Below, one piece after another: positions 7,019 to 57,715 of a stretch of DNA of 64,000 bases; the first letter of the stretch is position 1; the number at the start of each line of letters is the position of its first letter. A program made the translations under genes and the position numbers. The stretch spans positions 1,980,001-2,044,000 of the forward strand of contig NZ_CP032418.1 of the NCBI RefSeq assembly GCF_003595195.1, in the 5' to 3' direction. Source of the DNA: Paenisporosarcina cavernae. GTDB lineage: Bacteria > Bacillota > Bacilli > Bacillales_A > Planococcaceae. Below the pieces are notes generated by a model that saw nothing but the letters and a program-made list of their open reading frames with translations, ran no database searches and was not told the origin of the DNA.

Positions 7019-7097
7019 ACTAGTAAATGTGCGGTAATTTAAAATTTGGTGCGATAATGTCGAATTTGGTGCGAATTAAAATTACCGATTTACTAGT
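7019..7097. repeat. 20-bp tandem repeat inside a 79-bp inverted repeat
   Basis: GTGCG recurs at 7029, 7049 and 7069, exactly 20 bp apart. Two copies sit in the longer AATTTGGTGCGA (7043 and 7063). The block is framed by inverted arms: ACTAGTAAAT/ATTTACTAGT (7019-7028, 7088-7097) and CGGTAATTT/AAATTACCG (7032-7040, 7079-7087). It lies between the terminators of two convergent genes and is the smallest member of the array family described under findings. Confidence 0.8.
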
Positions 7098-7103
7098 GTA
7101 ATC

Positions 7104-7149
7104 ACAAAAACATCCTCCGACAAAGGTCATTCCAGATGTCGGAGGATGT
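7104..7149 (-). terminator. Terminator of the peptide ABC operon
   Basis: A perfect 13-bp stem, ACATCCTCCGACA (7110-7122) with TGTCGGAGGATGT (7137-7149). Read leftwards it is followed by TTTTTG. It ends the five-gene importer operon. Confidence 0.95.
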
Positions 7150-7153
7150 TTTA

Positions 7154-8044
7154 TTAGCTTTTCATTTTTGGATCAAGTGCATCACGCAAGCCATCACCCA
7201 TTAAGTTAAATCCTAATACGGTCAGCATGATTGCTAATCCTGGGAAGATCATAGTCCATGGTGCGTTGATTAGATATTGTCTAGCATCTGCCAGCATTTT
7301 CCCCCACTCAGGTGTAGGCGCTTGTGCTCCAAGTCCTAGGAAGCCGAGTGCTGCAGCTTCAATAATTGCAGTGGCAATTGCTAATGTTCCCTGAACAATG
7401 ACGGGTGCCATCGAGTTCGGGAGGATATGTGAGAATAAAATCCGGAAGTCTTTCATTCCAATTGCTTTTGCAGAAGTAATGTATTCTTCTTCTTTAATAC
7501 TCAATACTTTGGATCGAATAAGTCGACCGAAGTTAGGAATATTGATAATGGCAATCGCGATTAATGCATTTTGAAGAGAAGGTCCTAATACTGATACAAC
7601 TGCAATCGCAAGTAGAATACTTGGAAAAGCAAGCATGATATCAAAAATACGAGAGATAATGGCATCTACCCAGCGACCATAGTACCCTGCAATGATACCG
7701 AGTGTACTTCCTACGATAACGGATCCAATAACAGAAAAGAAACCAACCCATAATGATATACGAGCTCCATGAATAATTCGGGAAAGAATATCTCGACCGA
7801 AATCATCCGTTCCTAGCCAATGTTCCGCTGATGGAGCTTGTAAGCGTATGCTCATATTTTGTTCGTTAATCCCTTGTGGTGCAATCCACGGTGCGAAAAT
7901 GGCAAGTAAGATAAAGAAGATGACGATTCCAGCTCCAACAAGAGCTACTTTGCTTTTTTTGAAGCTTCGCCAAGCTTCCCTCCATGGTCCTGCTTCGCGT
8001 TCTTTTTTTACTGCAACGTTTGCTTTTGGCGCTAATTCAGACAT
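7154..8044 (-). CDS. Peptide ABC importer permease, DppC/AppC type
   Basis: Inner-membrane permease subunit (296 residues) of an oligopeptide or dipeptide importer. It has about six transmembrane segments and the binding-protein-dependent permease (EAA) loop EAAALGFLGLGAQAP near 215-230, which docks on the ATPases. An N-terminal cytoplasmic OppC-N extension (about 1-40) is present. It is the last gene of the operon, 17 bp after the other permease. The substrate is not evident from sequence. Confidence 0.92.
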   Translation of the reverse strand: MSELAPKANVAVKKEREAGPWREAWRSFKKSKVALVGAGIVIFFILLAIFAPWIAPQGINEQNMSIRLQAPSAEHWLGTDDFGRDILSRIIHGARISLWVGFFSVIGSVIVGSTLGIIAGYYGRWVDAIISRIFDIMLAFPSILLAIAVVSVLGPSLQNALIAIAIINIPNFGRLIRSKVLSIKEEEYITSAKAIGMKDFRILFSHILPNSMAPVIVQGTLAIATAIIEAAALGFLGLGAQAPTPEWGKMLADARQYLINAPWTMIFPGLAIMLTVLGFNLMGDGLRDALDPKMKS

Positions 8045-8061
8045 AGACGGGAGCCTCCTTC

Positions 8062-9075
8062 TTAATCATATTTAATACGTGGATCAATTAAGCTGTAAAG
8101 TAAATCAATAAGCAAGTTAATCATTACGAAGATAAATGCGACGACTAAAATACCAGATTGAATAACTGGGTAGTCTCGGAAGTTAATTGCCTCATAAATA
8201 TAACGACCGATACCTGGCCATCCGAAAATGGTTTCCGTTAAAATCGCACCACCAAGTAATAATCCCATTTGTAATCCAATGACGGTTAACACTGGGATAA
8301 TGGCATTTTTCAACGCGTGTTTGTAGACAACCCAAAACATTTTTTGTCCTTTTGCCCGTGCTGTACGAACGTAATCAGAACGCATCACTTCTAACATACT
8401 TGAACGTGTCATACGAGCAATGATTGCCATCGGAATCGTAGCAAGTGCAATTCCAGGTAATACTAAATGTTTCAACACAGTACCTAACTGGTCAAGCCTA
8501 CCAGTCATAAAGATGTCGATCACATAAAGTCCCGTGACGGCTTGAACGGGATCTCGAACTTCTTCTCGACCTGTAGTTGGTAAAATATCTAATTGAATTC
8601 CAAATACCCATTGCAGCATGAGACCTAGCCAGAAGATCGGCATGGAAACGCCGACAAGCGCTAGAATCATCGCCGTGTAATCAAACCAAGAATTTTGGAA
8701 CCAAGCAGAAATAATACCGGCATTCACCCCAATAATAACTGCGATAATAATGGCGAATAAGGAAAGCTCTAATGTAGCAGATAAATACTGCCAAATTTCA
8801 TCCTGCACTGGAACTTTTGTCCGGAGAGACTCCCCTAAATCCCCTGTGAATAATCCCTTTAAATAATCAAAATATTGAACATACCAAGGATTATCTAATC
8901 CGAGCTTTGCTCGTAATGATTCGATCGCTTCTTTCGTCGCCTGCTGCCCCAAAATTACTTGTGCAGGATCTCCAGGTATCGCCCGAATGATCATGAAAAC
9001 GACAAATGTCATGCCCAGCAAAACTGGGATTAATTGTAAGAGTCTTCTTCCAATATAGTGAAGCATCGTCTTCAC
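8062..9075 (-). CDS. Peptide ABC importer permease, DppB/AppB type
   Basis: Permease subunit (337 residues) paired with the downstream DppC-type protein. It shows the family start MLHYIGRRLLQLIPVLLG, six hydrophobic segments and a C-terminal EAA loop (LGGAILTETIFGWPGIGR). Residues about 170-215 form the extracellular insertion seen in DppB-type proteins. The start has GGTGAAG. A stem-loop separates it from the binding-protein gene. Confidence 0.92.
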   Translation of the reverse strand: MKTMLHYIGRRLLQLIPVLLGMTFVVFMIIRAIPGDPAQVILGQQATKEAIESLRAKLGLDNPWYVQYFDYLKGLFTGDLGESLRTKVPVQDEIWQYLSATLELSLFAIIIAVIIGVNAGIISAWFQNSWFDYTAMILALVGVSMPIFWLGLMLQWVFGIQLDILPTTGREEVRDPVQAVTGLYVIDIFMTGRLDQLGTVLKHLVLPGIALATIPMAIIARMTRSSMLEVMRSDYVRTARAKGQKMFWVVYKHALKNAIIPVLTVIGLQMGLLLGGAILTETIFGWPGIGRYIYEAINFRDYPVIQSGILVVAFIFVMINLLIDLLYSLIDPRIKYD

Positions 9076-9113
9076 CTCTCCATCTAATGCAGTATTGTGT
9101 AGCGAAAATCATA

Positions 9114-9147
9114 TAAACAGGGGAGAAATCACGATGACTTCTCCCCT
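9114..9147 (-). terminator. Intra-operon stem-loop after the binding-protein gene
   Basis: GGGGAGAAA (9120-9128) pairs with TTCTCCCC on the far side (9139-9146). Read leftwards the stem is followed by TGTTT only, so termination should be partial. Such hairpins after a binding-protein gene usually raise the binding protein's yield over the permeases, and I infer the same here. Confidence 0.65.
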
Positions 9148-9158
9148 TTTGTTGTAAC

Positions 9159-10772
9159 TTATTCGAAGTCTACTGTTTCCAATTTATCTGAACCAGTTGG
9201 ATGTGGTAAGAAACCAGTAATGTCCGCACGGCCAGCTAACAATGGTGTTGAGTGTGCAATTGGTACCCATGGTGCATCGTCAAAAATGATTTCTTGAGCT
9301 TGCATATATAGGTCATTACGTGCATCTTCATCAACAGTAGATTGCGCTTCAATCAGGATGTCGTGTAATTCGTCGTTGCTATAGTATGAATAGTTATTGC
9401 TTCCAATGTTGTCTTTGTCTAACAGAACGTAAATGAAGTTATCAGCATCTCCATTATCACCAGTCCATCCTAGTAAGAATGCATCTGCTTCTCCGTTACG
9501 TGCTTTTTCTAAATACGTAGCCCACTCGTATGAAACGATGTTTGCTTTGATTCCAACATCAGCTAAGTTCTTTTGCATTGCTTCCGCTACTTTTTGACCA
9601 TCAGGCATATAAGGACGTGGAACAGGCATAGCCCATAGATCCATTTCAAAGCCATCAGGGAAGCCAGCTTCTGCTAACAATTCTTTTGCTTTTGCTGGAT
9701 CGTAATCGTATCCAGGAATATCGTCATTGTATCCACCGATTACTGGAGGCATAGGGTTTTTCGCAACTTCTGCACGGCCTTCGAAGAATGCATCCACAAT
9801 CGCCTGCTTATCAATTGCATGGTTAATCGCTTGACGTACTAATTTGTTGTCAAACGGAGGTCGTGTGCTTGTTAAACCAAGGTACCCTACGTTCATAGAA
9901 GGACGTTCAAACAATTGTAACTCGTCATTACTTTCAACAGTTGCTCCATCAGCAGGGTTTACACCATCTGCTAAATCAATTTCACCAGTAGTTAAAGCGT
10001 TTAAACGAGCAGAGTTATCTGGAATAGAACGGAAGATAACTTTGTCTAACTTCGGAAGGCCATCTTGCCAGTAGTCTTCGTTTTTCTCGATTGTAATAGA
10101 GTCATTACGTTTCCATTCTACGAACTTAAATGGTCCAGTACCAACTGGATTGTCACCAAACGCTTCCCCTTTTTCTTCAACTGCAGCCGGGCTAGCAATT
10201 GCGAATGGGCTCATTGCAATATTTTTTAAGAATGGTGCTTGTGGACGTTTCAGTTTGAAAACAACTTTGTAATCGCCATCAGCAGTTACTGAATCAATTA
10301 CGTGGCCTTCATCCCCTTTGTATCCACCAAACATAGAAGAATAATAGTAGAAATCTTCCCCAGAACCATTTGCCCAACGATCGAAGTTGAATACAACTGC
10401 ATCCGCGTTGAAGTCTGTTCCATCATGGAATTTGATTCCTTCGTTTAACGTAAACGTGTATGTTAAACCATCATCTGACGCTTCCCATTCTTTTGCAAGA
10501 CCAGGATGAATTTCTGTATCTTGGTCGCCAAAGTTTACAAGCGTTTCAAAAACGTTTTTTGTTACTTTAAAAGATTCTCCATCTGTTACTGTTGCCGGAT
10601 CTAGAGATACCGAATCTCCACCGCGACCGAATACTAAAATCTTCGGTTTAGAGCTATCTCCACCATTATCTCCATTTGCATTATCGTCATCACCAGATGA
10701 ACATGCAGCTAAGATGGTAGAAAGGGTTAAAACTAGAAGTACAGCTAAAGACCATAATTTCTTTTTACTCAA
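9159..10772 (-). CDS. Peptide-binding lipoprotein of ABC importer
   Basis: Family 5 extracellular solute-binding protein (537 residues), similar to DppA/AppA. The N-terminus has a lipoprotein signal: basic SKKK, a hydrophobic stretch, then lipobox LAAC with the lipidated Cys at residue 24, followed by an Asp/Asn-rich linker. I chose the TTG at 10772 because GGAGGGG stands seven bases before it. An upstream ATG at 10802 overlaps the previous stop (ATGA) and would add ten residues, so it remains possible. It captures peptides at the outer membrane face and delivers them to the permeases. Confidence 0.88.
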   Translation of the reverse strand: MSKKKLWSLAVLLVLTLSTILAACSSGDDDNANGDNGGDSSKPKILVFGRGGDSVSLDPATVTDGESFKVTKNVFETLVNFGDQDTEIHPGLAKEWEASDDGLTYTFTLNEGIKFHDGTDFNADAVVFNFDRWANGSGEDFYYYSSMFGGYKGDEGHVIDSVTADGDYKVVFKLKRPQAPFLKNIAMSPFAIASPAAVEEKGEAFGDNPVGTGPFKFVEWKRNDSITIEKNEDYWQDGLPKLDKVIFRSIPDNSARLNALTTGEIDLADGVNPADGATVESNDELQLFERPSMNVGYLGLTSTRPPFDNKLVRQAINHAIDKQAIVDAFFEGRAEVAKNPMPPVIGGYNDDIPGYDYDPAKAKELLAEAGFPDGFEMDLWAMPVPRPYMPDGQKVAEAMQKNLADVGIKANIVSYEWATYLEKARNGEADAFLLGWTGDNGDADNFIYVLLDKDNIGSNNYSYYSNDELHDILIEAQSTVDEDARNDLYMQAQEIIFDDAPWVPIAHSTPLLAGRADITGFLPHPTGSDKLETVDFE

Positions 10773-10798
10773 TTTGACCCCTCCATATTGTGTATTTA

Positions 10799-11782
10799 TC
10801 ATTGTTGCATCTCCCCATTATATAAATGGCATGCAACAGAATGACCGGATTCAACTTCTTCCAATTTTGGAACCACTTGCGTGCACACATCCATTTTGAA
10901 AGGACAACGTGTGTGGAATGTGCATCCACTTGGTGGATTGGAAGGACTTGGGATATCTCCCTTAATAATAATTTGCTCTCTCGTAAAGTTCGGGTCAGGA
11001 ACCGGAACTGCAGAAAGTAGCGCTTTGGTGTATGGATGCAAAGGTTTGTCATATAGACCTTCGCTTGATGCAAGTTCCACCATTTTCCCTAAATACATTA
11101 CGCCTACACGATCGCTAATATGTCGAACGACACCAAGATCATGAGCAATAAAGATGTATGTTAACTTCAAGTCTTTCTGCAAGTCTTGCATTAAATTAAG
11201 AACTTGCGACTGAATGGAAACATCGAGTGCAGACACTGGTTCATCCGCTATTATCAATTTCGGATTTGTCATCAAAGCGCGTGCAATTCCTATTCGTTGA
11301 CGTTGCCCACCACTAAATTGGTGTGGATAACGCTTCGCATGATAGCTACTCAATCCTACTATTTCTAATAACTCATATACTTTTTTCTTCCGTTCTTTCG
11401 CATCACCTATACCATGAACAATCAACGGTTCTTCTAATATTTTCCCGATTGTATGACGAGGATTTAAGGAAGCGTAAGGATCTTGAAAGACCATTTGAAT
11501 TTCTCGACGAGCTTTACGCATCTCTTCTTTTGATGCTTCGGTTAAAACTCTGCCGTTAAATGTCACTTTACCTTCTGTAGGATCAAGTAGACGCATGAGC
11601 ATTCGACCCGTAGTCGACTTACCACAGCCAGATTCTCCAACAATCCCAAGTGTTTCTCCCTCATAAACTTCGAAGGAAACATCGTCAACGGCCTTCACGT
11701 GACCTGCTTCTCTTGCTAATAAACCTTTTTTAATTGGGAAATACTTTTTTAATCCTTCAACTTTCAACAGTGGCTCTGTCAT
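10799..11782 (-). CDS. Peptide ABC importer ATPase, DppF/OppF type
   Basis: ATP-binding subunit (327 residues) with Walker A GESGCGKST, signature SGGQRQR, Walker B LIIADEP and the C-terminal oligopeptide-ABC extension with cysteines (CTFHTRCPFKMDVC), a possible iron-sulfur site in this family. Its start lies 26 bp inside the preceding ATPase gene, so translation is probably coupled. Gene order ATPase-ATPase-binding protein-permease-permease is that of the B. subtilis app operon. Confidence 0.93.
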   Translation of the reverse strand: MTEPLLKVEGLKKYFPIKKGLLAREAGHVKAVDDVSFEVYEGETLGIVGESGCGKSTTGRMLMRLLDPTEGKVTFNGRVLTEASKEEMRKARREIQMVFQDPYASLNPRHTIGKILEEPLIVHGIGDAKERKKKVYELLEIVGLSSYHAKRYPHQFSGGQRQRIGIARALMTNPKLIIADEPVSALDVSIQSQVLNLMQDLQKDLKLTYIFIAHDLGVVRHISDRVGVMYLGKMVELASSEGLYDKPLHPYTKALLSAVPVPDPNFTREQIIIKGDIPSPSNPPSGCTFHTRCPFKMDVCTQVVPKLEEVESGHSVACHLYNGEMQQ

Positions 11783-12776
11783 CTACGTGCACCTCCTCGT
11801 TTTCATATAAGAAGCACCGTGTTTGGTGCACCGGAGATGTTTGATACAAGTCAGGATTTTCTGTTAGACACTTATCAAACGCAAACTCACAGCGTGCTGC
11901 AAATCGACATCCTTGTTTAATCGACCCTGGTCTCGGAACATTTCCTGGTATCGAATATAGACGTTGTTTTTTGTAGCGCATATCAGGAACAGATTGCAGC
12001 AATCCTTTTGTATAAGGATGTTGCGGGTCTTTGAAAATAATATCTACTGGACCTTGCTCAACAATTTGCCCTGCATACATCACGATGACGCGCTCGCACG
12101 TTTCAGCCACAACACCTAAATCATGGGTAATTAATAATACGGCTGTATTTAAGCGTTCATTTAAATCTTTCATTAACTGTAAAATTTGCGCTTGAATCGT
12201 TACATCTAGAGCGGTTGTCGGCTCATCTGCGATTAACACTTTCGGGTCACATACGAGTGACATCGCGATCATAACACGCTGTCTCATTCCACCCGAAAGT
12301 TGATGAGGATATTCTTTCATTAGTTCTGAAGCTCTTGGAAGCCCAACTAAAGTCATCATTTCTACTGCTCGATTTCTCGCCTGTGCTTTCGACCAATCTT
12401 TTTTATGTAACAAAATCGCTTCCATCAGTTGATTACCAATGGTAAAAAGTGGGTTTAAAGAAGTCATCGGTTCTTGGAATATCATCGCGACTTCGTTTCC
12501 TCGTACAGATCGCATTTCTTTTTCATTTAATTTCAATAAATCTCTATTTCCGTATAAGATTTCACCACTTGTAATTTTCCCAGGAGGGCTTTGAACCAGA
12601 CCCATAATAGAAAGAGAGGTGACACTTTTCCCACACCCTGATTCGCCTACAATACCTAAGACTTCTCCTTCATGAATCGAGAAATCAATATGATCTACCG
12701 CCGGAATTACCCCGTCATCTGTGAAAAAGGATGTCTGCAGATCCTTTACTTGAAGAATTGCTTTTCGCTCGCTCAT
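11757..12776 (-). CDS. Peptide ABC importer ATPase, DppD/OppD type
   Basis: First gene of the importer operon (339 residues). It has Walker A GESGCGKSV, Q-loop FQEPMTSLNP, signature LSGGMRQR and Walker B VLIADEPTTALD, and ends with the oligopeptide-specific extension (CRFAARCEFAFDKC). The start at 12776 (MSERKAIL) follows AAGGGGG; an ATG at 12839 lies over the -10 promoter element and is rejected. It works as a heterodimer with the DppF-type subunit. Confidence 0.92.
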   Translation of the reverse strand: MSERKAILQVKDLQTSFFTDDGVIPAVDHIDFSIHEGEVLGIVGESGCGKSVTSLSIMGLVQSPPGKITSGEILYGNRDLLKLNEKEMRSVRGNEVAMIFQEPMTSLNPLFTIGNQLMEAILLHKKDWSKAQARNRAVEMMTLVGLPRASELMKEYPHQLSGGMRQRVMIAMSLVCDPKVLIADEPTTALDVTIQAQILQLMKDLNERLNTAVLLITHDLGVVAETCERVIVMYAGQIVEQGPVDIIFKDPQHPYTKGLLQSVPDMRYKKQRLYSIPGNVPRPGSIKQGCRFAARCEFAFDKCLTENPDLYQTSPVHQTRCFLYENEEVHVDDRATVES

Positions 12777-12802
12777 GCTGTTCCCCCTTTTACACAGTTT
12801 AT

Positions 12803-12817
12803 TAATATCAGAATATT
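12803..12817 (-). promoter_or_regulatory. Possible CodY box of the peptide importer operon
   Basis: TAATATCAGAATATT matches the CodY consensus AATTTTCWGAAAATT at 11 of 15 positions and keeps the central TCWGAA. It lies just downstream of the -10, where CodY would block transcription. Peptide importers are known CodY targets in Bacillus, but a four-mismatch site is weak evidence. Confidence 0.4.
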
Positions 12818-12830
12818 TTATATGTTCTTT

Positions 12831-12858
12831 ATTATACAAATAGAAATTATTTTTGCAA
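12831..12858 (-). promoter_or_regulatory. Sigma-A promoter of the peptide importer operon
   Basis: On the minus strand TTGCAA (12858-12853) and a perfect TATAAT (12836-12831) are separated by 16 bp, about 55 bp upstream of the first gene. Confidence 0.8.
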
Positions 12859-12907
12859 TAGTTAATTTGTTATCTGTTAGAACTTTTGACCTACTTGAAA
12901 ATAAAGG

Positions 12908-12934
12908 AAAAACCCTTCAACTATTGAAGGGTTT
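12908..12934 (-). terminator. Terminator overlapping the end of the ygaD-like gene
   Basis: Stem AAACCCTTCAA/TTGAAGGGTTT with a three-base loop that is the stop codon itself, then TTTTT on the minus strand. The last codons and the terminator share bases. Confidence 0.9.
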
Positions 12935-14693: not shown

Positions 14694-14713
14694 TCTTTCA
14701 CCTCTTCCAAATG

Positions 14714-14737
14714 AAAAACCTGTTGAATGTCAACAGG
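14714..14737 (-). terminator. ygaC terminator
   Basis: Stem CCTGTTGA/TCAACAGG with a three-base loop, followed on the minus strand by TTTTT. It separates ygaC from the downstream exporter gene. Confidence 0.85.
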
Positions 14738-14739
14738 CA

Positions 14740-15288: not shown

Positions 15289-15373
15289 AATTTTGCCCAC
15301 CTTTTCGCAAAAAACGCGCACGTATATATTTGGTATGTGTCATATTATAACAACTTCGTATGTAAAACAGTAG

Positions 15374-28433: not shown

Positions 28434-28610
28434 ATGGGTAAACAAATTGACGATCAAGAAAAACAAATTACTTACTTAAAAGAGCGTTTGAATATGTTTT
28501 TAGAAGTATTAGATAGCATGGAGCCTGAATCTACACGCGTAGAAGATATTGACCGGCTAATTGCAATGATGGACGAACTTGAACTTAAAATGGAACAGTT
28601 TAAAAAATAA
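28434..28610 (+). CDS. SE1561 family small protein
   Basis: A 58-residue, highly charged, helical protein matching the SE1561 family found across Bacillales, of unknown function. The heptad-like pattern (ITYLKERLNMFLEVLDSM ... LIAMMDELELKMEQF) suggests a coiled coil or helical hairpin. The ATG at 28434 has GAGGTG six bases upstream; the GTG at 28425 is part of that Shine-Dalgarno. It ends 13 bp before the fumarase start, so the two should be co-transcribed. Confidence 0.85.
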   Translation: MGKQIDDQEKQITYLKERLNMFLEVLDSMEPESTRVEDIDRLIAMMDELELKMEQFKK

Positions 28611-28623
28611 AGGAGCATCTGTG

Positions 28624-30168
28624 ATGTATTTAGAAAATCTAGAACAAAGTATTTATGATTTAATTACCGAAACATCTACGAATCTTCCAAAAGACGTTCG
28701 TCGTGCAGTAGCTGCTGCAAAAAAAGCTGAAAATGCTGGTACTCGTGCCGCTATGAGCTTAGACACCATCACAACAAACATCCAAATGGCGGATGAAAAT
28801 GTTTCGCCTATCTGCCAAGATACTGGATTACCTACATTTAAAATTTACACTCCGGTTGGGGTCAACCAATTGGAAATAAAAGCGGCGATAAAACGTGCGA
28901 TTGTAACTGCTACAACAAACGGAAAACTTCGTCCAAATGCGGTAGACTCCTTAACAGGAAAAAATAGTGGCGACAATTTAGGTGACGGAGTACCTGTTAT
29001 TAAATTTGAACAATGGGAAAACGACACAATTGAAATGAAGCTGATTCTAAAAGGTGGCGGCTGTGAGAATAAAAACATTCAATACAGTCTTCCTTCAGAG
29101 TTAGAAGGTCTAGGTAAAGCCGGTCGTGATTTAGATGGGATTCGTAAATGTATTTTACACTCTGTCTATCAAGCACAAGGGCAAGGATGTTCGGCAGGAT
29201 TTATTGGAGTTGGAATTGGTGGCGATCGTTCTGCAGGGTATGAGCTAGCAAAAGAACAACTTTTCCGTTCCGTCGAAGATGTGAATCCTAACCCTGAGCT
29301 TGCACATTTAGAAAACTATATCGTAGAAAAAGCGAATACACTTGGAATTGGCACAATGGGCTTTGGTGGTGAAGCAACATTACTAGGATGTAAAATCGGT
29401 GTGATGCACCGTATTCCTGCAAGTTTCTTTGTATCCGTAGCCTATAACTGTTGGGCGTATCGCCGTTTAGCCGTTAACATAGATCCTTCTACTGGAGAAA
29501 TTGTGAAATGGCATTACCAAGACGGGGAAAAGATTTCATTTGACGAACAAAATGTCGAACAAGAAACGGAAGAAACAGCAAAAAAAGTGGTAGAACTGCG
29601 AGCTCCTATTTCTGAAGAAGAAATTCGTGCACTCCAAGTTGGAGATGTCGTGAAAATTAGTGGCATGATGTACACTGGTCGCGACGCCATCCATAAATAC
29701 TTATCTGAAAACGATGCACCGATTGATTTAAATGGTCAAATCATCTATCACTGCGGTCCAGTTGTGTTAAAAGATGAAAACGGCGATTATCAAATTAAAG
29801 CCGCTGGTCCAACAACATCTATTCGTGAAGAACCTTACCAAGGCGATATCATGAAAAAATTTGGAATCCGTGCTGTTATGGGGAAAGGCGGTATGGGACC
29901 TAAAACGCTTGCCGCACTTCATGAACATGGCGGAGTCTATCTAAATGCCATCGGTGGCGCTGCACAATACTATGCCGATTGTATCAAAGGTGTAGAAGGT
30001 GTCGACTTAATGCAATTCGGCATTCCAGAAGCAATGTGGCACTTACGAGTGGAGGATTTTACAGCCGTAGTCACAATGGACTCCCACGGGAACAGCCTAC
30101 ACGCAGATGTAGACAAATCATCCCTTGAAAAACTAGCGCAATACTCAGATCGAGTATATCAATCATAG
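28624..30168 (+). CDS. fumA: Class I fumarate hydratase
   Basis: Iron-sulfur fumarase (514 residues) interconverting fumarate and malate in the TCA cycle. The N-terminal alpha part (about 1-280) holds the cluster cysteines, in ICQDTGLP, GGGCENKN and TLLGCK-type contexts. The C-terminal beta part (about 330-514) has the family motifs TGRDAIHKYL and GKGGMGPKT. Both parts are fused as in FumA. The start at 28624 has AAAGGAG; the in-frame ATG at 28579 lies inside the upstream gene. Confidence 0.92.
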   Translation: MYLENLEQSIYDLITETSTNLPKDVRRAVAAAKKAENAGTRAAMSLDTITTNIQMADENVSPICQDTGLPTFKIYTPVGVNQLEIKAAIKRAIVTATTNGKLRPNAVDSLTGKNSGDNLGDGVPVIKFEQWENDTIEMKLILKGGGCENKNIQYSLPSELEGLGKAGRDLDGIRKCILHSVYQAQGQGCSAGFIGVGIGGDRSAGYELAKEQLFRSVEDVNPNPELAHLENYIVEKANTLGIGTMGFGGEATLLGCKIGVMHRIPASFFVSVAYNCWAYRRLAVNIDPSTGEIVKWHYQDGEKISFDEQNVEQETEETAKKVVELRAPISEEEIRALQVGDVVKISGMMYTGRDAIHKYLSENDAPIDLNGQIIYHCGPVVLKDENGDYQIKAAGPTTSIREEPYQGDIMKKFGIRAVMGKGGMGPKTLAALHEHGGVYLNAIGGAAQYYADCIKGVEGVDLMQFGIPEAMWHLRVEDFTAVVTMDSHGNSLHADVDKSSLEKLAQYSDRVYQS

Positions 30169-30177: not shown

Positions 30178-30206
30178 AAGCCATCCCATCGTGGATGGCT
30201 TTTTTG
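30178..30206 (+). terminator. Fumarase terminator
   Basis: Stem AAGCCATCC/GGATGGCTT with a six-base loop and six T. Confidence 0.92.
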
Positions 30207-30255
30207 TGGATGAGAAGATAAGGCTGACTGGAGATTGATTGGAGATCGTGCGGAA

Positions 30256-30801
30256 GTGTCTTAATGTGCGGCGAGAGTGTCCTGAAGTTTTGCGAAAGTG
30301 TCCTAATGTCACTCAAAAGTGTCCTAATGTCTCTCGAAAGTGTCCTAATGTCTCTCGAAAGTGTCCTAATGTCTCTCGAAAGTGTCCTAATGTCTCTCGA
30401 AAGTGTCCTAATGTCACTCAAAAGTGTCCTAATGTGACTCAAAAGTGTCCCAATGTCACTCAAAAGTGTCCTAATGTGTCTCAAAAGTGTCCCAATGTGA
30501 CTCAAAAGTGTCCCAATGTCTCTCGAAAGTGTCTCAATGTCACGGCAAAGTGTCCCAATGTCTCTCGAAAGTGACCTAATGTCCCGGAAAAGTGTCCTAA
30601 TGTCACTCGAAAGTGTCCCAATGTCTCTCGAAAGTGTCCCAATGTCTCTCGAAAGTGACCCAATGTCACTCGAAAATGTCTCAATGTCTCTCGAAAGTGT
30701 CCCAATGTCTCTCGAAAATGTCTCAATGTCTCTCGAAAGTGTCCCAATGTCTCTCGAAAGTGTCCTAATGTCCCACGGAAATGTCTCATTACCCCCACAC
30801 T
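30256..30801. repeat. Large 21-bp tandem array, 26 units
   Basis: Units begin GTGTCCTAATG and end CTCGAAA (21 bp), starting at 30256 and repeating in strict register to 30801 with no insertion or deletion. Variation is confined mainly to CCTAA/CCCAA/CTCAA and to the segment TCTCTCG/TCACTCA/TGACTCA/TCACGGC. Because 21 is seven codons, several frames stay open on both strands, producing heptad peptides such as KCPNVSR and RDIGTLS. It lies after the fumarase terminator. The function of the array is unknown. Confidence 0.97.
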
Positions 30802-30867
30802 TCAGACTTGCAGAAATGCTACATGTAAAATTATGGTACACTCACTCTAAAGAATTGAGGTGATTTC

Positions 30868-39243: not shown

Positions 39244-39424
39244 TTCCTCACCACCAAATTATATTTGTTTAAAATATAAACTTTTATCATATATATTGTC
39301 AATAATTATGCTGATTATAATGGAAATGCTTAAATAGGTTGGACCTTTTTCGGCATCCTGTAAATACTTTTAGGGATTCCTATAATAGTTAAAATTCCGA
39401 ATTATAAATGGGGTTATTTGGAAA

Positions 39425-39550
39425 ATGTCGCGGAAATTCATTAAAAGGGGTTCGAATTGATCGAGAATGGCGCGAGATTGCACCAAAATGGGCTGGAAAG
39501 AAGCGAAAATGTCTCAACTTTCTATTAAAATGTCGCGGGTCCTACTCGCA
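39425..39550. repeat. 21-bp diverged tandem array, six units
   Basis: Units start at 39425, 39446, 39467, 39488, 39509 and 39530 with exact 21-bp spacing. Five of the six begin ATGTC or ATGG and most end in AAA; copies 1 and 6 share ATGTCGCGG. Copies are only partly alike, so this is an old array whose spacing has outlasted its sequence. CGAAAATGTCTCAA at 39504 also occurs in the array at 30671. Confidence 0.85.
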
Positions 39551-49443: not shown

Positions 49444-49519
49444 CCTTTTTCAGAAGATAATTTAGCGAACTACTGAGAAGTACTGATAGGTTTATTGTGA
49501 GTTTGACATGTGTATGTTG

Positions 49520-49624
49520 GAAAATCAATCGTCTACGCCCGAGAATCGATCGCCTACCGCTGAGAATCGATCGCCTACCGCTGAGAATCGATCGCCTACC
49601 GCTGAGAATCGATCGCTCTCCATG
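49520..49624. repeat. 21-bp tandem array, five units
   Basis: Units start at 49520, 49541, 49562, 49583 and 49604. The three central copies are identical (GAGAATCGATCGCC then TACCGCT); the outer two are diverged. Each unit carries the palindrome ATCGAT/CGATCG. It sits between the terminators of two convergent genes. Confidence 0.93.
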
Positions 49625-49631
49625 TCTTCAC

Positions 49632-49662
49632 GAAAAAAGCTGACGCAATGTTTGCGTCAGCT
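49632..49662 (-). terminator. map terminator
   Basis: Perfect stem AAGCTGACGCA/TGCGTCAGCTT, five-base loop, six T on the minus strand. Confidence 0.95.
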
Positions 49663-49667
49663 TCCTC

Positions 49668-50438
<771 letters not shown>

Positions 50439-50480
50439 CTAGTCCCTATCATACCATATGCACAACACACGTCGAACAAT

Positions 50481-51059: not shown

Positions 51060-51103
51060 TCCTTCTCCTCCTAAACGATGTAGTGTGGAGGGCGATGGCA
51101 CAA

Positions 51104-51240
51104 AAAAAAGACATCAAGGACAGAGCCCTGACATCTGATTGTCGGTTTCCATCCACATCCCTGCGCAAGTATTAACTTACAGGTTCAAAGAGTTAGAGCA
51201 ATCGCTCAGTCTCAGCCAAAAAGGCACCCCTTGTGGTAGC
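51104..51240 (-). promoter_or_regulatory. TPP riboswitch with terminator
   Basis: On the minus strand the aptamer (51153-51237) has AAGGGGTGCC, GGCTGAGA, TTTGAACCTG and GTTAATACTTGCGCAGGGA, the complete THI-box core, closed by CCACA/TGTGG. It is followed by a hairpin (about 51110-51135) with eight T (51102-51109). High thiamine pyrophosphate should stop transcription before thiT. Confidence 0.96.
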
Positions 51241-51328
51241 TACATCTTATTAAATTACATTCCCATTATACAAATACAAGATTTCAAAAGCAACCTATGT
51301 TTATAATAGGGAAAAAGGAGGGGCTCGT

Positions 51329-52399: not shown

Positions 52400-52444
52400 A
52401 TCTTTTTCGGATTTCGTTCGTAAAGGAGTGTAGAGGGAGTGATT

Positions 52445-52795
52445 GTGTTGGAGAACAGTCGTATATTATCTGCACTTTGTTATTTTAGCGTGTTTTTCGC
52501 GCCGTTCTTATTACCGATTATTGTGTTTTTTATCACGCCAGATGAGCTAGTGAAACATCATGCGAAGCGGTCATTAATTTCTCATCTCATCCCAATTGCA
52601 CTTGGTATCTTTGGGGCAATAGGATTTAGTCTATTGTTTGCTGGAGTGTCGTATGCGGGTGACGCGGGATACAGTGGTAGTGGAATTGGTTTTGCTGCTG
52701 GATTGCCAATCATCATGGTACTTTTATATGGTATTCTTTCGTTGGTCATCCTGATCTGGAATGTAGTTCAAGGCATCAAAGTGCTTCAAGAATAG
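52445..52795 (+). CDS. DUF4870 membrane protein
   Basis: A 116-residue DUF4870 protein with three hydrophobic helices and the family motif HHAKRSLISHL between helices 1 and 2. Function unknown. The GTG at 52445 lies five bases after GAGGGAG; the in-frame GTG at 52439 is within that sequence. A TTG directly after is also possible. Confidence 0.83.
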   Translation: MLENSRILSALCYFSVFFAPFLLPIIVFFITPDELVKHHAKRSLISHLIPIALGIFGAIGFSLLFAGVSYAGDAGYSGSGIGFAAGLPIIMVLLYGILSLVILIWNVVQGIKVLQE

Positions 52796-52856
52796 GTTTT
52801 ATGACATCTTTTCTAGGGAATACTACCATTACTAATGTGAGTAGGGAGAGATGAAG

Positions 52857-52973
52857 ATGAAGCTAGGTAGGTTAGTAAAAACAGCAATTAAGTACGCACC
52901 GATCATTATCCCCATCGTCAAAAAAGTGATGGATAAGAAGAAAACTAATGGTGTTAGACGTTCGTATAAATAA
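52857..52973 (+). CDS. Small cationic amphipathic protein (38 aa)
   Basis: ATG 52857 with AGGGAG eight bases upstream gives a 38-residue protein rich in Lys/Arg. A central Ile/Pro stretch (YAPIIIPIVKKVMDK) could form an amphipathic helix. Ends RRSYK. ATG 52851 is in frame but too close to the Shine-Dalgarno. Not recognised. It has its own terminator 13 bp downstream, which supports it as a gene. Confidence 0.6.
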   Translation: MKLGRLVKTAIKYAPIIIPIVKKVMDKKKTNGVRRSYK

Positions 52974-52985
52974 TGGTTAAATTGT

Positions 52986-53018
52986 AAATCCCCACGGACT
53001 TTCGTCCATGGGGATTTT
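52986..53018 (+). terminator. Terminator after the 38-aa gene
   Basis: Stem AAATCCCCA-GGAC with GTCC-TGGGGATTT, then T. Confidence 0.9.
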
Positions 53019-53074
53019 CATGTCGAGAATGTATAATTATTATAAATATCAATTTGATATTATAATTAATAATT

Positions 53075-53171
53075 TATGAGCGTTGAAAGTTTCTTTATGA
53101 GCGGCCAATCTCTACTTATAAGCGTTCAATCCGTTTTATAAACGTTCACGGTCAACTTATGATCGCTTCAA
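53075..53171. repeat. 20/21-bp tandem array, about five units
   Basis: TATGAGCG or TATAAGCG-like units begin at 53075, 53096, 53117, 53137 and 53158 (spacings 21, 21, 20, 21). The core is TATRARCGTT. The last copy runs into the stop codon of the aminopeptidase gene at 53172. Located between two convergent genes. Confidence 0.82.
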
Positions 53172-54401
53172 TTAAAACGCCCAGTTTCCTTCGCGGAAGA
53201 TTGCTACTTCAGTGCCATCTTCTTGAATTCCGTCGATATCCATGTGTTCGCTTCCAATCATAAAGTCTTCATGTGTGATGGAGACATTCAATCCGGCTGC
53301 TTTAATTTGTTCTTCGTTCATATCGCGGCCACCTTCGATACAAGTCGGGTATGCTTCTCCTATTGCCAAGTGGTTAGATGCGTTTTCATCAAATAATGTA
53401 TTGAAGAAAAGGATGTTCGAATCGGAGATTGGTGATTTGTGCGGTACTAATGCAATTTCACCTAAGTACGCAGATCCTTCATCGTTTGAAATCATTTCTT
53501 GTAGGATGTCATCACCAATTGCCGCATGCGCTTTGACAATTTTTCCGTTTTCAAATGTTAATTCGAATCCGTCGATGATGTTTCCTTGATACGCAAGAGG
53601 TTTCGTGTTTCGAACTACACCATTTACACCATTCTTAAGAGGTGCTGTATACACTTCTTCTGTCGGCATGTTCGCAATAAATGGCGTATTATCTGGTGTG
53701 CGACTTGCTCCTGACATCCAAATATGGTTTTTTGGAAGTTCAATACTTAAGTCTGTTCCTGGTGCACGGTACACTAATTTTGCAAAGCGTTTTTCATTTA
53801 ACATCGCTGCGCGAGATTCCAACGCATCCACGTGTGCTTTCCATTGTTCCACGGCAGTTCCTTCTCCGATACGAACCGCTTTAAAAATAGCATCCCATAG
53901 TGCAGGAACTTGCTCTTCTTCCGGTAGGTTCGGGAATACTTTTGCTGCCCATTTAGGAGATGGAATTGCAACAATCGACCAAGCAATTTTGTCCGTCATC
54001 GTCGCTTGGCGGAACTTTTCAAGTGCTTTCCCAAATGCTTTCGAGCGTTCTGATAAGCGCTTCACGGATACGCCAGTGAGTGCATCTGGATCTTCTGCAT
54101 CTATCCACAAACTTGCGCCTTTTTGATCGACTAAATAGTCACGTTGCGCAACGATCCAAGAAGGAATATTACTCATTTGGTCTTCTGGTGCTAATTCGTA
54201 AAATGCACGATTAATTTTTTCATCCGTAAACTGAACATGGACATAGCCAGCTCCAGCTTCATACGCTTTTTCTACAACTAAGCGAGTAAATTCTAACGTT
54301 TCCGTTGTTGTTCCAATACTTAAATATTGCCCCTTTTGAATGTTAACTCCAACACGCACTGCAAGTTCTGCGTATTCGGCCATTTTTTCGTGAAAATTCA
54401 T
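53172..54401 (-). CDS. M29 family aminopeptidase, second copy
   Basis: Paralogue of the gene at 41367 (409 residues), sharing PTEEVYTAPLKNGVNG, GEIALVPHKSPISDS, LFDENASNHLAIGEAY and the C-terminal REGNWAF. Metal residues Glu, His and Asp are all kept. The start at 54401 (MNFHEKMAEY) follows AGAGGGAAA; a longer frame to 54506 enters the helicase gene. It begins two bases after the helicase stop, so the two genes are co-transcribed. No clear terminator follows before the 21-bp array. Confidence 0.92.
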   Translation of the reverse strand: MNFHEKMAEYAELAVRVGVNIQKGQYLSIGTTTETLEFTRLVVEKAYEAGAGYVHVQFTDEKINRAFYELAPEDQMSNIPSWIVAQRDYLVDQKGASLWIDAEDPDALTGVSVKRLSERSKAFGKALEKFRQATMTDKIAWSIVAIPSPKWAAKVFPNLPEEEQVPALWDAIFKAVRIGEGTAVEQWKAHVDALESRAAMLNEKRFAKLVYRAPGTDLSIELPKNHIWMSGASRTPDNTPFIANMPTEEVYTAPLKNGVNGVVRNTKPLAYQGNIIDGFELTFENGKIVKAHAAIGDDILQEMISNDEGSAYLGEIALVPHKSPISDSNILFFNTLFDENASNHLAIGEAYPTCIEGGRDMNEEQIKAAGLNVSITHEDFMIGSEHMDIDGIQEDGTEVAIFREGNWAF

Positions 54402-54403
54402 GA

Positions 54404-55546
54404 TTATTTCCCTCTTTTCTCTGTAATTGTCTTTGAGGAACCCTCTATTAAATCCCCGCGATGCCATACTTTCTGAACAGGTTTCGATGGAAGTTCTTTC
54501 GTCCATTTTTTGTAATTCTTCTCGTCAGAATAGGATAATAATGACAGTACTTCCCCGTCCGCTCCTGCACGACCAGTTCGCCCGGACCGATGTAAATACG
54601 GTTCGATACTTCTTGGGACGTCAACATGAATAACATGTGTGACACCTTCAATGTCTAGACCACGAGCCGCTAAGTCTGTTGACATTAATATCGCCACTTC
54701 GCCTTTTCGAAAGCTATCCATCGCTTTTTTCCGCTCTTCTTTTTTCATCTCGGAATGAAGTGCAACAATCTTCGCATCACGGAATGCCAGCTTTGTTTCT
54801 TTCATCAACAACTGATCGAGGTTATTCACGAACGCGAGTCCCTTCATTCCCGGGAGGTGAGACAATCGTCGAAGTAAATCAGTTTTGTCTCGTTCATCAA
54901 CTTTAACATATGAGTGGACGACTTTCCCAACTGCAGGCAGCTCGTCGTTTGTGACCGTAATTCTAACAGGATCTTGAAGCAGTCTATCTGACACTAATTC
55001 AATTTCTTCTGTAATGGTTGCGGATACAATCGCTGTTTGTGCTTTCGCGCCTTGTAAAAAGCCTTTTACCATGTCACGATTTTCACGGGCTAATAGCTGA
55101 TCTCCTTCATCCAAAATAATCGTTTGAATCTCATGAAGCTTCAGCTTTTTTGCTTTCACTAGCTCTTGTAATCTTCCAGGAGTTCCTACCACGATCGTTG
55201 GTTTTTTCTTCAGCTTTTCAATTTGACGTTGCATATTCGCTCCGCCAATCAGTTGTGTGACGGTAATGTCAGTTCCTTGCACCCATTCACGAACCACTTC
55301 GACAATTTGCATCGATAATTCTTGCGAAGGAGCAACAATTAAGGCTTGCGTATTTTTCTTTGTGGCATCTACTTTTTGCAAAATTGGTAGTACATACGCG
55401 AGCGTTTTTCCTGAACCAGTCGGGCTCATCGCCACAACGTCTTTGCCTTCAAGTAATGCTGGAATCATTTTCGTTTGAATGGGCATTTCCGCAGAGAATG
55501 ACCATTTTTTTTGTAATTCTTCATTTAACAAAGGGAGAAATGACAT
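54404..55546 (-). CDS. yfmL: DEAD-box RNA helicase, YfmL type
   Basis: Compact DEAD-box ATPase (380 residues). Motifs in order: Q-motif (IQTKMIPAL), I SPTGSGKT, Ia PSQELS, Ib VGTPGRL, II DEGD in place of DEAD, III SATI, V STDLAARGLD and VI HRSGRTGR. The DEGD variant of motif II keeps the catalytic Asp and Glu, and fits the YfmL-like group, linked to 50S ribosome assembly in B. subtilis. No C-terminal RNA-binding domain. Operon with the M29 peptidase. Confidence 0.88.
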   Translation of the reverse strand: MSFLPLLNEELQKKWSFSAEMPIQTKMIPALLEGKDVVAMSPTGSGKTLAYVLPILQKVDATKKNTQALIVAPSQELSMQIVEVVREWVQGTDITVTQLIGGANMQRQIEKLKKKPTIVVGTPGRLQELVKAKKLKLHEIQTIILDEGDQLLARENRDMVKGFLQGAKAQTAIVSATITEEIELVSDRLLQDPVRITVTNDELPAVGKVVHSYVKVDERDKTDLLRRLSHLPGMKGLAFVNNLDQLLMKETKLAFRDAKIVALHSEMKKEERKKAMDSFRKGEVAILMSTDLAARGLDIEGVTHVIHVDVPRSIEPYLHRSGRTGRAGADGEVLSLLSYSDEKNYKKWTKELPSKPVQKVWHRGDLIEGSSKTITEKRGK

Positions 55547-55558
55547 CGCAATCCCCTC

Positions 55559-56263
55559 CTATTCCGGATTCACTACATCATAGCCACAAGCAACAATCGC
55601 CGCTTCAGCCAAAACAAGTAGTGAATCAATATATTTTTCGCTTAGTGCTAGTTCTTCTCGAACAATCGAAAGCTCCGTGCATCCGAGAATGAAGGACTCG
55701 CACCCTTTTTGTTCCATTGCATGAATAATCGTTTCCCAGTTCTCACGATTTGTTGGTTTGCCTGCTTTTACATCGTCATAAATAACCGACATCACCAGCT
55801 CTTGAATGTCATTATCCGGGATAATGGTTTCTACTCCAACTTCTTCGAACGCTTGTTGGTACACCTTCGAAAAAATTGTCCCTGATGTTGCCAATATCCC
55901 TACGCGCTTCACACCTAAACTCACGGTTTTTTTTGCAGTTTCACGTATCATGTGAAGAACTGGAATATCTAGCTGTTCTTGAATCTCCTCGTAAAAGCTA
56001 TGCGCCGTATTACACGGAATAGCCAATACATCAACGCCAAACGCCGTGAGTTTTTTTCCGTCTTCGACCATCTTAGGAACAGGACTCGGTTTTGCATTGT
56101 CCAAAATGTGTGCGGTTCGATCAGGTATCGAGGTATTGTTGGAAATGACGAATGGCAAATGATCCTGATCTTTTGCAGCTTTCGTATGTTTCACAATCAT
56201 CTCCCCAAGCAACATCGTCGCAAGTGGACCAACGCCACCAATGATTCCTAATGTTTTTTTCAT
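55559..56263 (-). CDS. Aspartate/glutamate racemase family protein
   Basis: Asp/Glu racemase superfamily (234 residues), PLP-independent. The two catalytic cysteines are present in IPCNTAHSFYEE and LGCTELSIV, as is the N-terminal GIIGGVGPLATM. It converts L- to D-aspartate or glutamate. It starts where the ATP-grasp gene ends (one-base overlap), so the pair probably makes and uses a D-amino acid. It is not MurI, whose signature differs. Confidence 0.9.
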   Translation of the reverse strand: MKKTLGIIGGVGPLATMLLGEMIVKHTKAAKDQDHLPFVISNNTSIPDRTAHILDNAKPSPVPKMVEDGKKLTAFGVDVLAIPCNTAHSFYEEIQEQLDIPVLHMIRETAKKTVSLGVKRVGILATSGTIFSKVYQQAFEEVGVETIIPDNDIQELVMSVIYDDVKAGKPTNRENWETIIHAMEQKGCESFILGCTELSIVREELALSEKYIDSLLVLAEAAIVACGYDVVNPE

Positions 56264-57486
56264 TACTCGGACAGTCCTTTGTTGTTGAAGTATTTCTTGT
56301 ATTTACGGTAATAATTCAGGTTGTTCATCATCAACTTCATCCAGCGTTGCCAGTGGAAATCTTTCTTGTAAAACAAATGATTCGTTACTTTTCCTTGGGC
56401 AATTAACTTCTTCGCTTTATCTAGTAACGCGCCGTTTTGTGCGTATTTAAACAGCACACCTTTCGGGATAATCATCCATAAATGCTCATCTTTCGCATAC
56501 GTTAGTTCTTGCGGCACATTGAAAATGTGGTCATCTGCGACATACTTCATTAAATTATGTCCACTCGCGGTTACGTAATAGCTGCTACGACCATTTCGAA
56601 GGTTGATCTCAAACAATTTGTATTGTCCGTCGCGAGAATCATATTTCATATCAAAATTCGCACACCCAACATAGCCGATGTCTTCTAAGAAAAAGCGCAC
56701 TTTGTCGAGCAATGCTTCATCAAATGTATTGATAATTGCTGCATAGCTCCCGATTCCTTCTGGAGAATGTTCTTCTAGGATTGGGTTTCCAAGTGACATA
56801 AGCTTCACTTTTCCATCCTTTCCAACGTATGCATTTAACACACGCATATACGAATCGTCTCCAGGGATGAATTCCTGAATGGTTAAGTTATCCTGGTACG
56901 GCGAGTTATAAATCGCTGTTAAAATTGCCGTTTTTTCTGCTTCATCATGCGCTACGAACACTTTTTTCTTTCCTGGGAATGAAACATTCCAATACGCTAC
57001 AGAGTTCGAAGGTTTAATAATAATTGGATACTGGAAATCTAGCTCGAGCGTATCCTTCGTTTCAGGTGTACAAATGGTTGTTTTCGGATACGAAAAGCCG
57101 TACTTTTCACACATTTCATAGAAATTTTCTTTTAAGACAATTTGATTCATTAATGTTTCGTCAATATAAGGAACGGTGTAGTAATGGGAAAGTTCCGATT
57201 TGTTTTTGATAATCAATTTCGCGTAATCATCTCCACATGCCATTAATAATAACGGCATATTTGGATGATGACTCGCCACTTGAATAAGGGCAGGAACAAA
57301 TACTTTGTCCGTATTTAAATCTGGAATCACTTCAAAATCTAAAATACTGCTATGTTGTGTCGCTGTTAAGTTTGCACGTCCTAATACAAGAGGTTTCACA
57401 CCATACGCTTCATGAAACGCGCGTGCCATTCCATATGCATTCATATCTGAACCGAGTAATACCGGTAAAAAAGCTGTAGTCGTCAT
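56263..57486 (-). CDS. ATP-grasp D-aspartate ligase-like protein
   Basis: ATP-grasp carboxylate-amine ligase (407 residues). The N-terminal FLPVLLGSDMNAYGMARAF closely recalls Enterococcus faecium D-aspartate ligase (AslFm), as I remember it. The ATP-grasp core spans about 120-330, with PIIIKPSNS (nucleotide lysine), QEFIPGDDSY and the metal-binding FEINLRNGRSS. AslFm joins D-Asp to the lysine side chain of peptidoglycan precursor. With the adjoining racemase I infer cross-bridge synthesis with D-Asp or D-Glu. Confidence 0.8.
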   Translation of the reverse strand: MTTTAFLPVLLGSDMNAYGMARAFHEAYGVKPLVLGRANLTATQHSSILDFEVIPDLNTDKVFVPALIQVASHHPNMPLLLMACGDDYAKLIIKNKSELSHYYTVPYIDETLMNQIVLKENFYEMCEKYGFSYPKTTICTPETKDTLELDFQYPIIIKPSNSVAYWNVSFPGKKKVFVAHDEAEKTAILTAIYNSPYQDNLTIQEFIPGDDSYMRVLNAYVGKDGKVKLMSLGNPILEEHSPEGIGSYAAIINTFDEALLDKVRFFLEDIGYVGCANFDMKYDSRDGQYKLFEINLRNGRSSYYVTASGHNLMKYVADDHIFNVPQELTYAKDEHLWMIIPKGVLFKYAQNGALLDKAKKLIAQGKVTNHLFYKKDFHWQRWMKLMMNNLNYYRKYKKYFNNKGLSE

Positions 57487-57590
57487 AATATCTCACTTTC
57501 TTCTTATATACTTTTCCATCCAAAAGTATACCATTAAATGGCCTAATTAGAAAAACCCATCTTTGCAGATGGACTTTGCGTTGAAAATTT

Positions 57591-57715
57591 CCCATCATTC
57601 TTTCAAAATCGCCCATATGGAAGGTGTTTTTACCCATAGGAACCGAAAACTTCCCATAGCGGATTCATTTTTTCCCATAGAGGTCGAAAAATTGCCCATT
57701 GAGTACAATTCCTAG
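57591..57715. repeat. 20/21-bp diverged tandem array, six units
   Basis: CCCAT recurs at 57591, 57612, 57633, 57653, 57674 and 57695 (spacings 21, 21, 20, 21, 21). Most units read TTCCCATAG or close to it, with purine-rich GAAAA between. The sequence outside CCCAT is poorly conserved while spacing is kept. Confidence 0.83.

What the first reader, a model, noticed from the sequence alone, without database searches (positions are those of the whole stretch)
7019..57715. A family of phased 20/21-bp intergenic arrays recurs at seven loci
Short tandem arrays with a period of 21 bp (sometimes 20) occupy seven gaps: 7019, 18634, 30256, 39425, 49520, 53075 and 57591. Unit sequences differ between loci, yet the period is the same and is kept even where copies have diverged (39425, 57591). 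Every array lies beyond the intrinsic terminator of a neighbouring gene, in DNA that should be untranscribed, whether genes are convergent or tandem. 21 bp is two B-DNA turns, so each unit would present the same face to a protein. Arrays at 30671 and 39504 share CGAAAATGTCTCAA, and the 7043 (minus strand) and 18634 arrays share ATCGCAC, which suggests common descent. The spacing therefore looks more conserved than the sequence. Possible roles are a nucleoid-protein or topological spacer, an insulator after terminators, or a replicating slippage element; none is shown.
Basis: partly seen in the sequence, partly recalled or inferred. Interest (0 to 1): 0.85.

Follow-up and report, generated by a model that had tools for sequence, protein, structure and literature searches.

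The report
Phased iteron-like arrays between bacterial genes
Many gaps between genes in this bacterium and its relatives hold rows of short, species-specific DNA words spaced two turns of the helix apart, which looks like a row of docking sites for an unknown protein rather than junk DNA.

Summary
The arrays are real and not confined to the window. In 464 kb of this 2.54-Mb genome, chains of four or more repeated words occur 18 times at 20/21-bp spacing and 0 times at ten other spacing pairs; in 80 named relatives' loci (1.63 Mb) 49 against 1. Each unit is a conserved 9-15 bp core plus a much freer spacer, head to tail. Cores differ between species and there are about ten per genome. Family F1 (30293-30772) recurs at 22 loci; its 205 strict core pairs are all exactly 21 bp apart and absent from 260 other genomes of the order. 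In ortholog arrays cores change less than spacers. Neutral slippage does not explain this; a trans-acting reader would. The format is that of plasmid iterons, and F1 matches the iterons of one Rep_3 plasmid, pMCCL6. Other cores match sampled iterons weakly or not at all, and this genome encodes no Rep_3 protein. My preferred mechanism, chromosomal decoys for incoming replication initiators, is inferred (about 0.3). Of the seven claimed loci four are firm, two are supported by context, and 39425 is not supported.

The parts
7029..7074 (-). Array of family F4, core ATCGCAC on the minus strand, period 20, 2.3 copies
   Evidence: TRF; lag 20, p 0.046; F4 recurs in the genome
18634..18688 (+). Array of family F4, GAATCGCACACCTATTAATCG, period 21, 2.6 copies
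30231..30813 (+). Array of family F1, core AAAGTGTCCYAATGT plus a variable part, period 21, about 23 units
39423..39545 (.). Claimed diverged array; not supported as a 21-bp array, shares a 14-mer with the F1 array
   Evidence: best lag in the gap is 15; no chain
49523..49627 (+). Array AATCGATCGCCTACCGCTGAG, period 21, 4.5-5 copies
53074..53156 (+). Array with core TTATGAGCGTTCAA, spacings 21, 21, 20, unrelated spacers
57612..57715 (-). Array of family F2, core CTATGGG on the minus strand, spacings 21, 20, 21, 21, unrelated spacers
   Evidence: family recurs
30180..30206 (+). Terminator-like hairpin and T run between the fumarase gene and the F1 array
   Evidence: read by eye
28579..30168 (+). 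Fumarate hydratase gene upstream of the F1 array; used to find named relatives
   Evidence: NCBIfam hits

Best explanation
The arrays are rows of head-to-tail binding sites for sequence-specific proteins. Each unit has a 9-15 bp asymmetric core, and successive cores lie two helical turns apart, so that bound molecules line up on one face of the DNA. I hold that part at about 0.75. The next step is inferred: the format is that of plasmid and phage replication iterons, so I think the arrays most likely act as chromosomal decoys that titrate or handcuff the iteron-binding initiator of an incoming plasmid or phage, as iterons outside an origin can do. Several unrelated cores per genome would answer to several element groups, core turnover to an arms race, and array growth to dosage. 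Gaps between terminators would be where such DNA does least harm. I put the whole statement, decoy step included, at about 0.3.
For: Only 20/21-bp spacing gives chains. Core and spacer differ sharply in conservation across 21 F1 arrays. Ortholog cores change less than spacers (24/221 against 63/323). 502 core 8-mers direct, 0 inverted. At one orthologous gap three core versions occur in four genus genomes, with unrelated spacers. The F1 core matches the 22-bp iterons 24 bp upstream of the Rep_3 gene of pMCCL6 (E 2e-7). 69 of 76 Rep_3 loci of the family plus pMCCL6 have direct repeats at 21-23 bp upstream of rep. Precedents: plasmid-borne lambda iterons take part in excluding lambda (PMC3349717, passages); extra RctB sites titrate an initiator in Vibrio cholerae (PMC3937223, passages).
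Against: Without F1 and pMCCL6, chromosomal cores match 36 distinct sampled iterons weakly (9 columns, p 0.025) or not (12 columns, p 0.185). Seven other arrays found nothing in plasmids and F1 nothing in phages. The E-value of a tandem repeat against a tandem repeat is inflated, and one match among eight array queries could be chance. Chromosomal spacing is 20/21, plasmid spacing 21-23. The own genome has no Rep_3, RepA_N or IS21, so continued selection on F1 would have to come from visiting elements. Of eight genomes with F4 arrays, three also carry Rep_3, so there is no simple avoidance of such plasmids. The F1 core strand follows replication direction at 17 of 22 loci, which simple decoys do not predict.
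Confidence: 0.3

Rival explanations
1. Sites for one or more host proteins that coat DNA between transcription units (nucleoid, insulator or fork-barrier role), with fast-evolving specificity.
For: Scarcity in divergent gaps (8 of 62 placed arrays where divergent gaps hold 31% of intergenic bases, crude gene calls); core changes across a whole locus between genus members; F1 orientation follows replication and not genes.
Against: About ten unrelated cores in one genome would need about ten readers; presence or absence at one site differs within the genus. No candidate protein was found or sought by experiment.
Confidence: 0.33
2. Self-propagating satellites: units multiplied by an enzyme (transposase, recombinase or nickase) that needs two cores two turns apart, so that cores and phase are kept by the amplification itself.
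For: One ortholog pair differs by exactly one 21-bp unit; F1 arrays reuse a few spacer types within a locus; one type of IS21 end in this family has 3-4 repeats at 21-22 bp.
Against: Own genome has no IS21; 10-bp spacers are shared between F1 loci only 10 times (null mean 4.5, p 0.027), so most loci did not copy each other; no enzyme identified.
Confidence: 0.22
3. Ordinary minisatellites made by replication slippage, without function.
For: Tandem format; unit gain or loss; non-coding gaps.
Against: Slippage has no reason to give only 20/21 bp or to spare the core, nor to keep 21 bp between units whose spacers are unrelated.
Confidence: 0.1
4. Coding repeats (heptads of 7 codons).
For: 21 is a multiple of 3, and some arrays are open in several frames (ORFs between 30071 and 30863). 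L128 1409-1701 looked coding to me by its repeats and was set aside.
Against: Some arrays are 20 bp or mix 20 and 21 (L081: two chains of 11 and 17 units at 20); cores are conserved as DNA and spacers are free.
Confidence: 0.02

Closest known systems
Iterons of Rep_3 (WH1-WH2 initiator, PF01051) plasmids, e.g. pMCCL6 of Macrococcoides caseolyticum
   Same: Head-to-tail direct repeats about two helical turns apart with an asymmetric core; the F1 core matches pMCCL6 iterons apart from one inserted base (by eye)
   Different: No rep gene beside them or in the genome, up to 35 units, dispersed over many loci, 20/21 bp instead of 21-23, most cores without a known iteron counterpart
Initiator-titrating sites outside origins (RctB sites of Vibrio cholerae chromosome II; plasmid-borne lambda iterons)
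   Same: Initiator sites away from the origin that can reduce replication (PMC3937223, PMC3349717, passages seen)
Terminal repeats of IS21 elements (IstA sites)
   Same: Short cores repeated at 21-24 bp in several IS21 ends of this family; 23 bp in IS5376 (PMC10122671, passages)
   Different: Inverted at two ends around istA/istB; few copies; other cores; no IS21 in this genome
Bacterial minisatellites / VNTRs
   Same: Intergenic tandem repeats, unit gain or loss
   Different: One fixed period over many unrelated sequences, and conserved core with free spacer

Membership tests
Rep_3 plasmid iterons | Head-to-tail direct repeats about two helical turns apart | tested here: met
   Chromosome 20/21 bp, 502 direct and 0 inverted core 8-mers; plasmids 21-23 bp
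Rep_3 plasmid iterons | Next to a rep gene at an origin | tested here: not met
   No PF01051 match in the own genome; 41 of 261 family genomes have one
Rep_3 plasmid iterons | Core sequence equal to that of known iterons | tested here: inconclusive
   F1 against pMCCL6 yes; others p 0.025 (9 columns) and p 0.185 (12 columns) without F1 and pMCCL6
Rep_3 plasmid iterons | Bound by the initiator | not testable with these tools
   Needs a binding assay
IS21 terminal repeats | Inverted sets at both ends of istA/istB | tested here: not met
   No IS21 match in the own genome; no inverted cores in or beside arrays
Slippage minisatellite | Unit gain or loss in orthologs | tested here: met
   One of three pairs, one 21-bp gap; the other two pairs have gaps of 1-12 bp
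Slippage minisatellite | Change spread along the unit, no preferred period | tested here: not met
Coding repeats | Reading frame kept | tested here: not met
   20-bp and mixed 20/21 arrays
Structured RNA | Rfam match over an array at the gathering score | tested here: not met
   Window only; the one match is a TPP riboswitch at 51141-51241
CRISPR, TIGR arrays, DnaA-box clusters | Their repeats, proteins or boxes | not tested
   Considered from recall only

The most novel reading that the evidence does not exclude
Planococcaceae and related Bacillaceae chromosomes carry a natural, DNA-coded immunity: arrays of iteron mimics soak up or handcuff the initiators of incoming plasmids and phages. Each core family answers to one group of replicons, array length sets the dose, and cores turn over in an arms race.
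Probability: 0.22. Interest if true: 0.95.

Novelty: new variant of a known kind. Interest (0 to 1): 0.74.

Why it matters
Intergenic DNA that keeps its helical spacing and core words in a bacterial family while changing the rest implies a DNA-binding system that my searches did not find described. If it is a host protein, it would be a fast-evolving chromosome-organising system. One pull-down experiment could tell these apart.

Tried and rejected
Coding repeats: rejected on 20-bp arrays and the core/spacer pattern. Structured RNA: only a TPP riboswitch in the window. General identity with Rep_3 iterons: a PWM test was weak (z 2.4, Fisher p 0.02). The first profile tests used a null that broke up the conserved core and were inflated; the corrected null gives p 0.025 (9 columns) and 0.185 (12 columns) without F1 and pMCCL6. 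RepA_N: the repeats upstream of rep are 23 bp with other cores. IS21: 30 loci read; one type of end (L298, L303, L306, L311) has 3-4 repeats at 21-22 bp with cores unlike the arrays, others 24 or 35 bp, in most loci no repeats were found. The AATCGCAAG array in L296 proved to lie just after a gene, beside an IS21. Viral contigs: 0, 4, 10 and 2 hits for four core pairs, near what I estimate by hand for chance, although L268 has a third copy by the chain detector and L270 by eye; ORF lists show no long transposase-like frame beside them, and L270 found nothing in plasmids. BLAST of seven arrays other than F1 against plasmids: nothing; BLAST is a poor detector here because spacers differ. Literature: nine searches gave no paper on such arrays that I recognised from the listings; most subscription papers are not in the library.

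Rows dropped or merged: two L128 chains (probably coding), leaving 65 of 67 arrays, 39 of them distinct; 29 places merged by hand into 22 loci. Of 85 listed Rep_3 matches, 74 were fetched (one of them twice), plus pMCCL6, which makes the 76 loci.
Full report
WHAT WAS CHECKED. The window is G000:C1:1980001-2044000 of a single contig of 2,537,131 bases. Its fumarase is 84-89% identical to those of the eight other genus members held, and one of these, G003, reads the same array as the named Paenisporosarcina quisquiliarum locus L062. So the organism is Paenisporosarcina or very near it (inferred). Tandem Repeats Finder and direct reading show arrays at 7029, 18634, 30293 and 49523. A local permutation test over lags 15-28 supports 18634, 30256, 49520 and 53075 (p 0.002 each, the smallest value possible). 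It is borderline for 7019 (p 0.046), weak for 57591 (p 0.11) and does not support 39425, whose best lag is 15. The 57591 array is nevertheless a five-unit chain at 21, 20, 21, 21.

IS THE PERIOD MORE THAN CHANCE. I took 20 evenly spaced 20-kb stretches of the same genome and 80 named loci around fumarase in relatives (the best 80 of 574). A chain detector (four or more 8-mers, at most one mismatch to the neighbour) found 18 chains at 20/21 bp in 464 kb of own sequence and 0 at ten other spacing pairs from 12 to 33 bp. In 1,634,595 bases of relatives it found 49 against 1. The distance histogram of repeated 9-mers peaks at 20 and 21 and near their multiples, while 22 is low (own: 22, 105, 3 at 20, 21, 22; relatives: 40, 141, 5); there is no peak at 31-32 bp, three turns. 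In 18 stretches from other families of the class (328,332 bases) there were 0 such chains; a looser setting gave 2 at 20/21 and 2 at 18/19. In 18 stretches from the own genus and family (324,758 bases) there were 4 at 20/21, with 2 at 18/19 and 1 at 26/27. Of the 80 named loci, 30 hold at least one chain, among them 6 of 6 Neobacillus, 9 of 20 Lysinibacillus, 5 of 14 Sporosarcina and 0 of 7 Kurthia. These counts include L128, which looked coding, and long arrays split into several chains.

ANATOMY. Each unit has a conserved core and a much freer spacer. For family F1, 21 arrays with 282 units were read. In the 240 inner units, core columns are 91-100% one base except one C/T position, while the five spacer columns hold 0.07-0.51 bits (units were admitted with up to 4 of 11 core mismatches, and array ends had to be perfect). 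The spacer is 67% G+C against 39.8% for the window. F1 occurs at 22 loci after merging 29 matches. Its 205 strict core pairs are all exactly 21 bp apart: widening the gap to 10-13 bases added none. None was found in the 260 other genomes of the order, nor in the 120 other genomes of a class sample, 8 of which belong to the same family. About ten other cores exist in the same genome, some of them sharing parts such as AATCG or TTAACTTTC. Relatives have their own cores, for example TTTGTAGAAT in Neobacillus, CCGCGGGTATT in Lysinibacillus and TTTTCGTCCA in Paenisporosarcina. In and beside the arrays 502 core 8-mers are direct and 0 inverted. Of 67 chains, 37 lie in tandem gaps, 17 in convergent, 8 in divergent, 1 inside an ORF call and 4 at edges; divergent gaps hold 31% of intergenic bases (crude gene calls). 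Terminator-like hairpins flank arrays at 7029, 30293 and 49523, read by eye.

SELECTION. Two Neobacillus ortholog pairs and one Paenisporosarcina pair were aligned. With cores defined from both sequences, cores changed at 24 of 221 sites and spacers at 63 of 323 (Fisher p 0.009). The two Neobacillus pairs alone give 8 of 171 against 36 of 270 (p 0.003). A first version, with cores defined from one sequence, gave 20/205 against 67/339. L118 and L127 differ by exactly one 21-bp unit; the other two pairs have gaps of 1-12 bp. In the gap upstream of fumarase, four of the eight other genus genomes have arrays: G003 with TTTTCGTCCA, G007 with TTTCCGACCACTCA, G005 and G006 (identical there) with a shorter and looser TTTATGTCCA array, each with unrelated spacers. 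The other four show none. In the own genome no chain was found there; its array lies downstream of the gene. A core that changes across the units of a locus while its spacers differ points to a trans-acting reader, because copying of whole units would also homogenise the spacers (inference).

WHAT READS IT. Searching plasmids with F1 gave one record, pMCCL6 of Macrococcoides caseolyticum (E 2e-7, 78% identity over 18% of the query). The match is 4.7 copies of a 22-bp repeat just upstream of a gene with Rep3_N and Rep3_C domains. These are plasmid iterons by position, and the F1 core differs from them by one inserted base (by eye). Rep_3 genes occur in 41 of 261 family genomes and not in the own genome. 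Of 76 Rep_3 loci read, 69 show 3-7 direct repeats upstream of rep at 21-23 bp spacing. But once F1 and pMCCL6 are left out, the distinct chromosomal arrays match the distinct iterons only weakly (9 columns, p 0.025) or not (12 columns, p 0.185), and seven other arrays found nothing in plasmids. IS21 (149 of 261 genomes at E<=0.001, none in the own) and RepA_N (20 of 261, none in the own) were tested as other sources and did not fit, although one type of IS21 end has a similar 21-22 bp format. So the format is iteron-like, one family has a plausible iteron counterpart, and the rest have none yet.

MECHANISM. Shown: phase and core are kept, a unit can come or go whole, and orientation within arrays is uniform. 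Inferred: a protein reads the core on one face of the helix. Iterons outside an origin can block replication: plasmid-borne lambda iterons are needed for exclusion of lambda, together with oop transcription (PMC3349717, passages), and extra RctB sites titrate the chromosome II initiator of Vibrio cholerae (PMC3937223, passages). Against it stand the lack of matches for other cores and of a resident Rep_3 in this genome. The F1 core strand follows the replication direction at 17 of 22 loci (strands, GC skew; my binomial, two-sided 0.017; without the locus at the inferred terminus 16 of 21, 0.027). It does not follow gene direction (4 same, 6 opposite among 10 tandem loci of 19 read). That fits a replication-linked origin or role and is not predicted by simple decoys.

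NOVELTY AND VERDICT. Nine literature searches of an open-access library found no description of such arrays that I recognised from the listings. A survey of prokaryotic satellites (PMC6749651, abstract and passages) reports transposed satellite families with long repeats only in Leptospira interrogans and Methanocella conradii. I rate this a new variant of a known kind: iteron-format arrays found in gaps between genes instead of at origins, with no known reader.

Noticed in passing
L007, L009, L013, also L005 and L015 (flanks of F1 arrays): Short palindromes such as GATTTTCGG..CCGAAAATC sit close to several F1 arrays and may be a second dispersed repeat family (seen by eye).
   Followed up: no
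G000, 22 F1 loci: The F1 core strand follows replication direction at 17 of 22 loci and not gene direction.
   Followed up: partly
F1 arrays in G000: F1 spacers are 67% G+C in a window of 39.8%, and rich in CG steps, although variable.
   Followed up: no
L303, also L298, L306, L311: One type of IS21 end in this family carries 3-4 repeats at 21-22 bp with short cores, a format close to the arrays.
   Followed up: partly
L061-L140, both sides of fumarase: Arrays with unrelated cores recur next to the fumarase gene in several genera: downstream in the window and in Neobacillus-type loci, upstream in others.
   Followed up: partly
window 51141-51241, minus strand: TPP riboswitch.
   Followed up: no
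L268, L270: Metagenomic viral contigs with two exact and a looser third copy of an F1-like core at 20-22 bp, origin unknown.
   Followed up: partly
G000 whole genome: At 2.54 Mb it is smaller than the eight other genus members held (2.8-4.1 Mb) and has none of the Rep_3, RepA_N and IS21 proteins searched.
   Followed up: no
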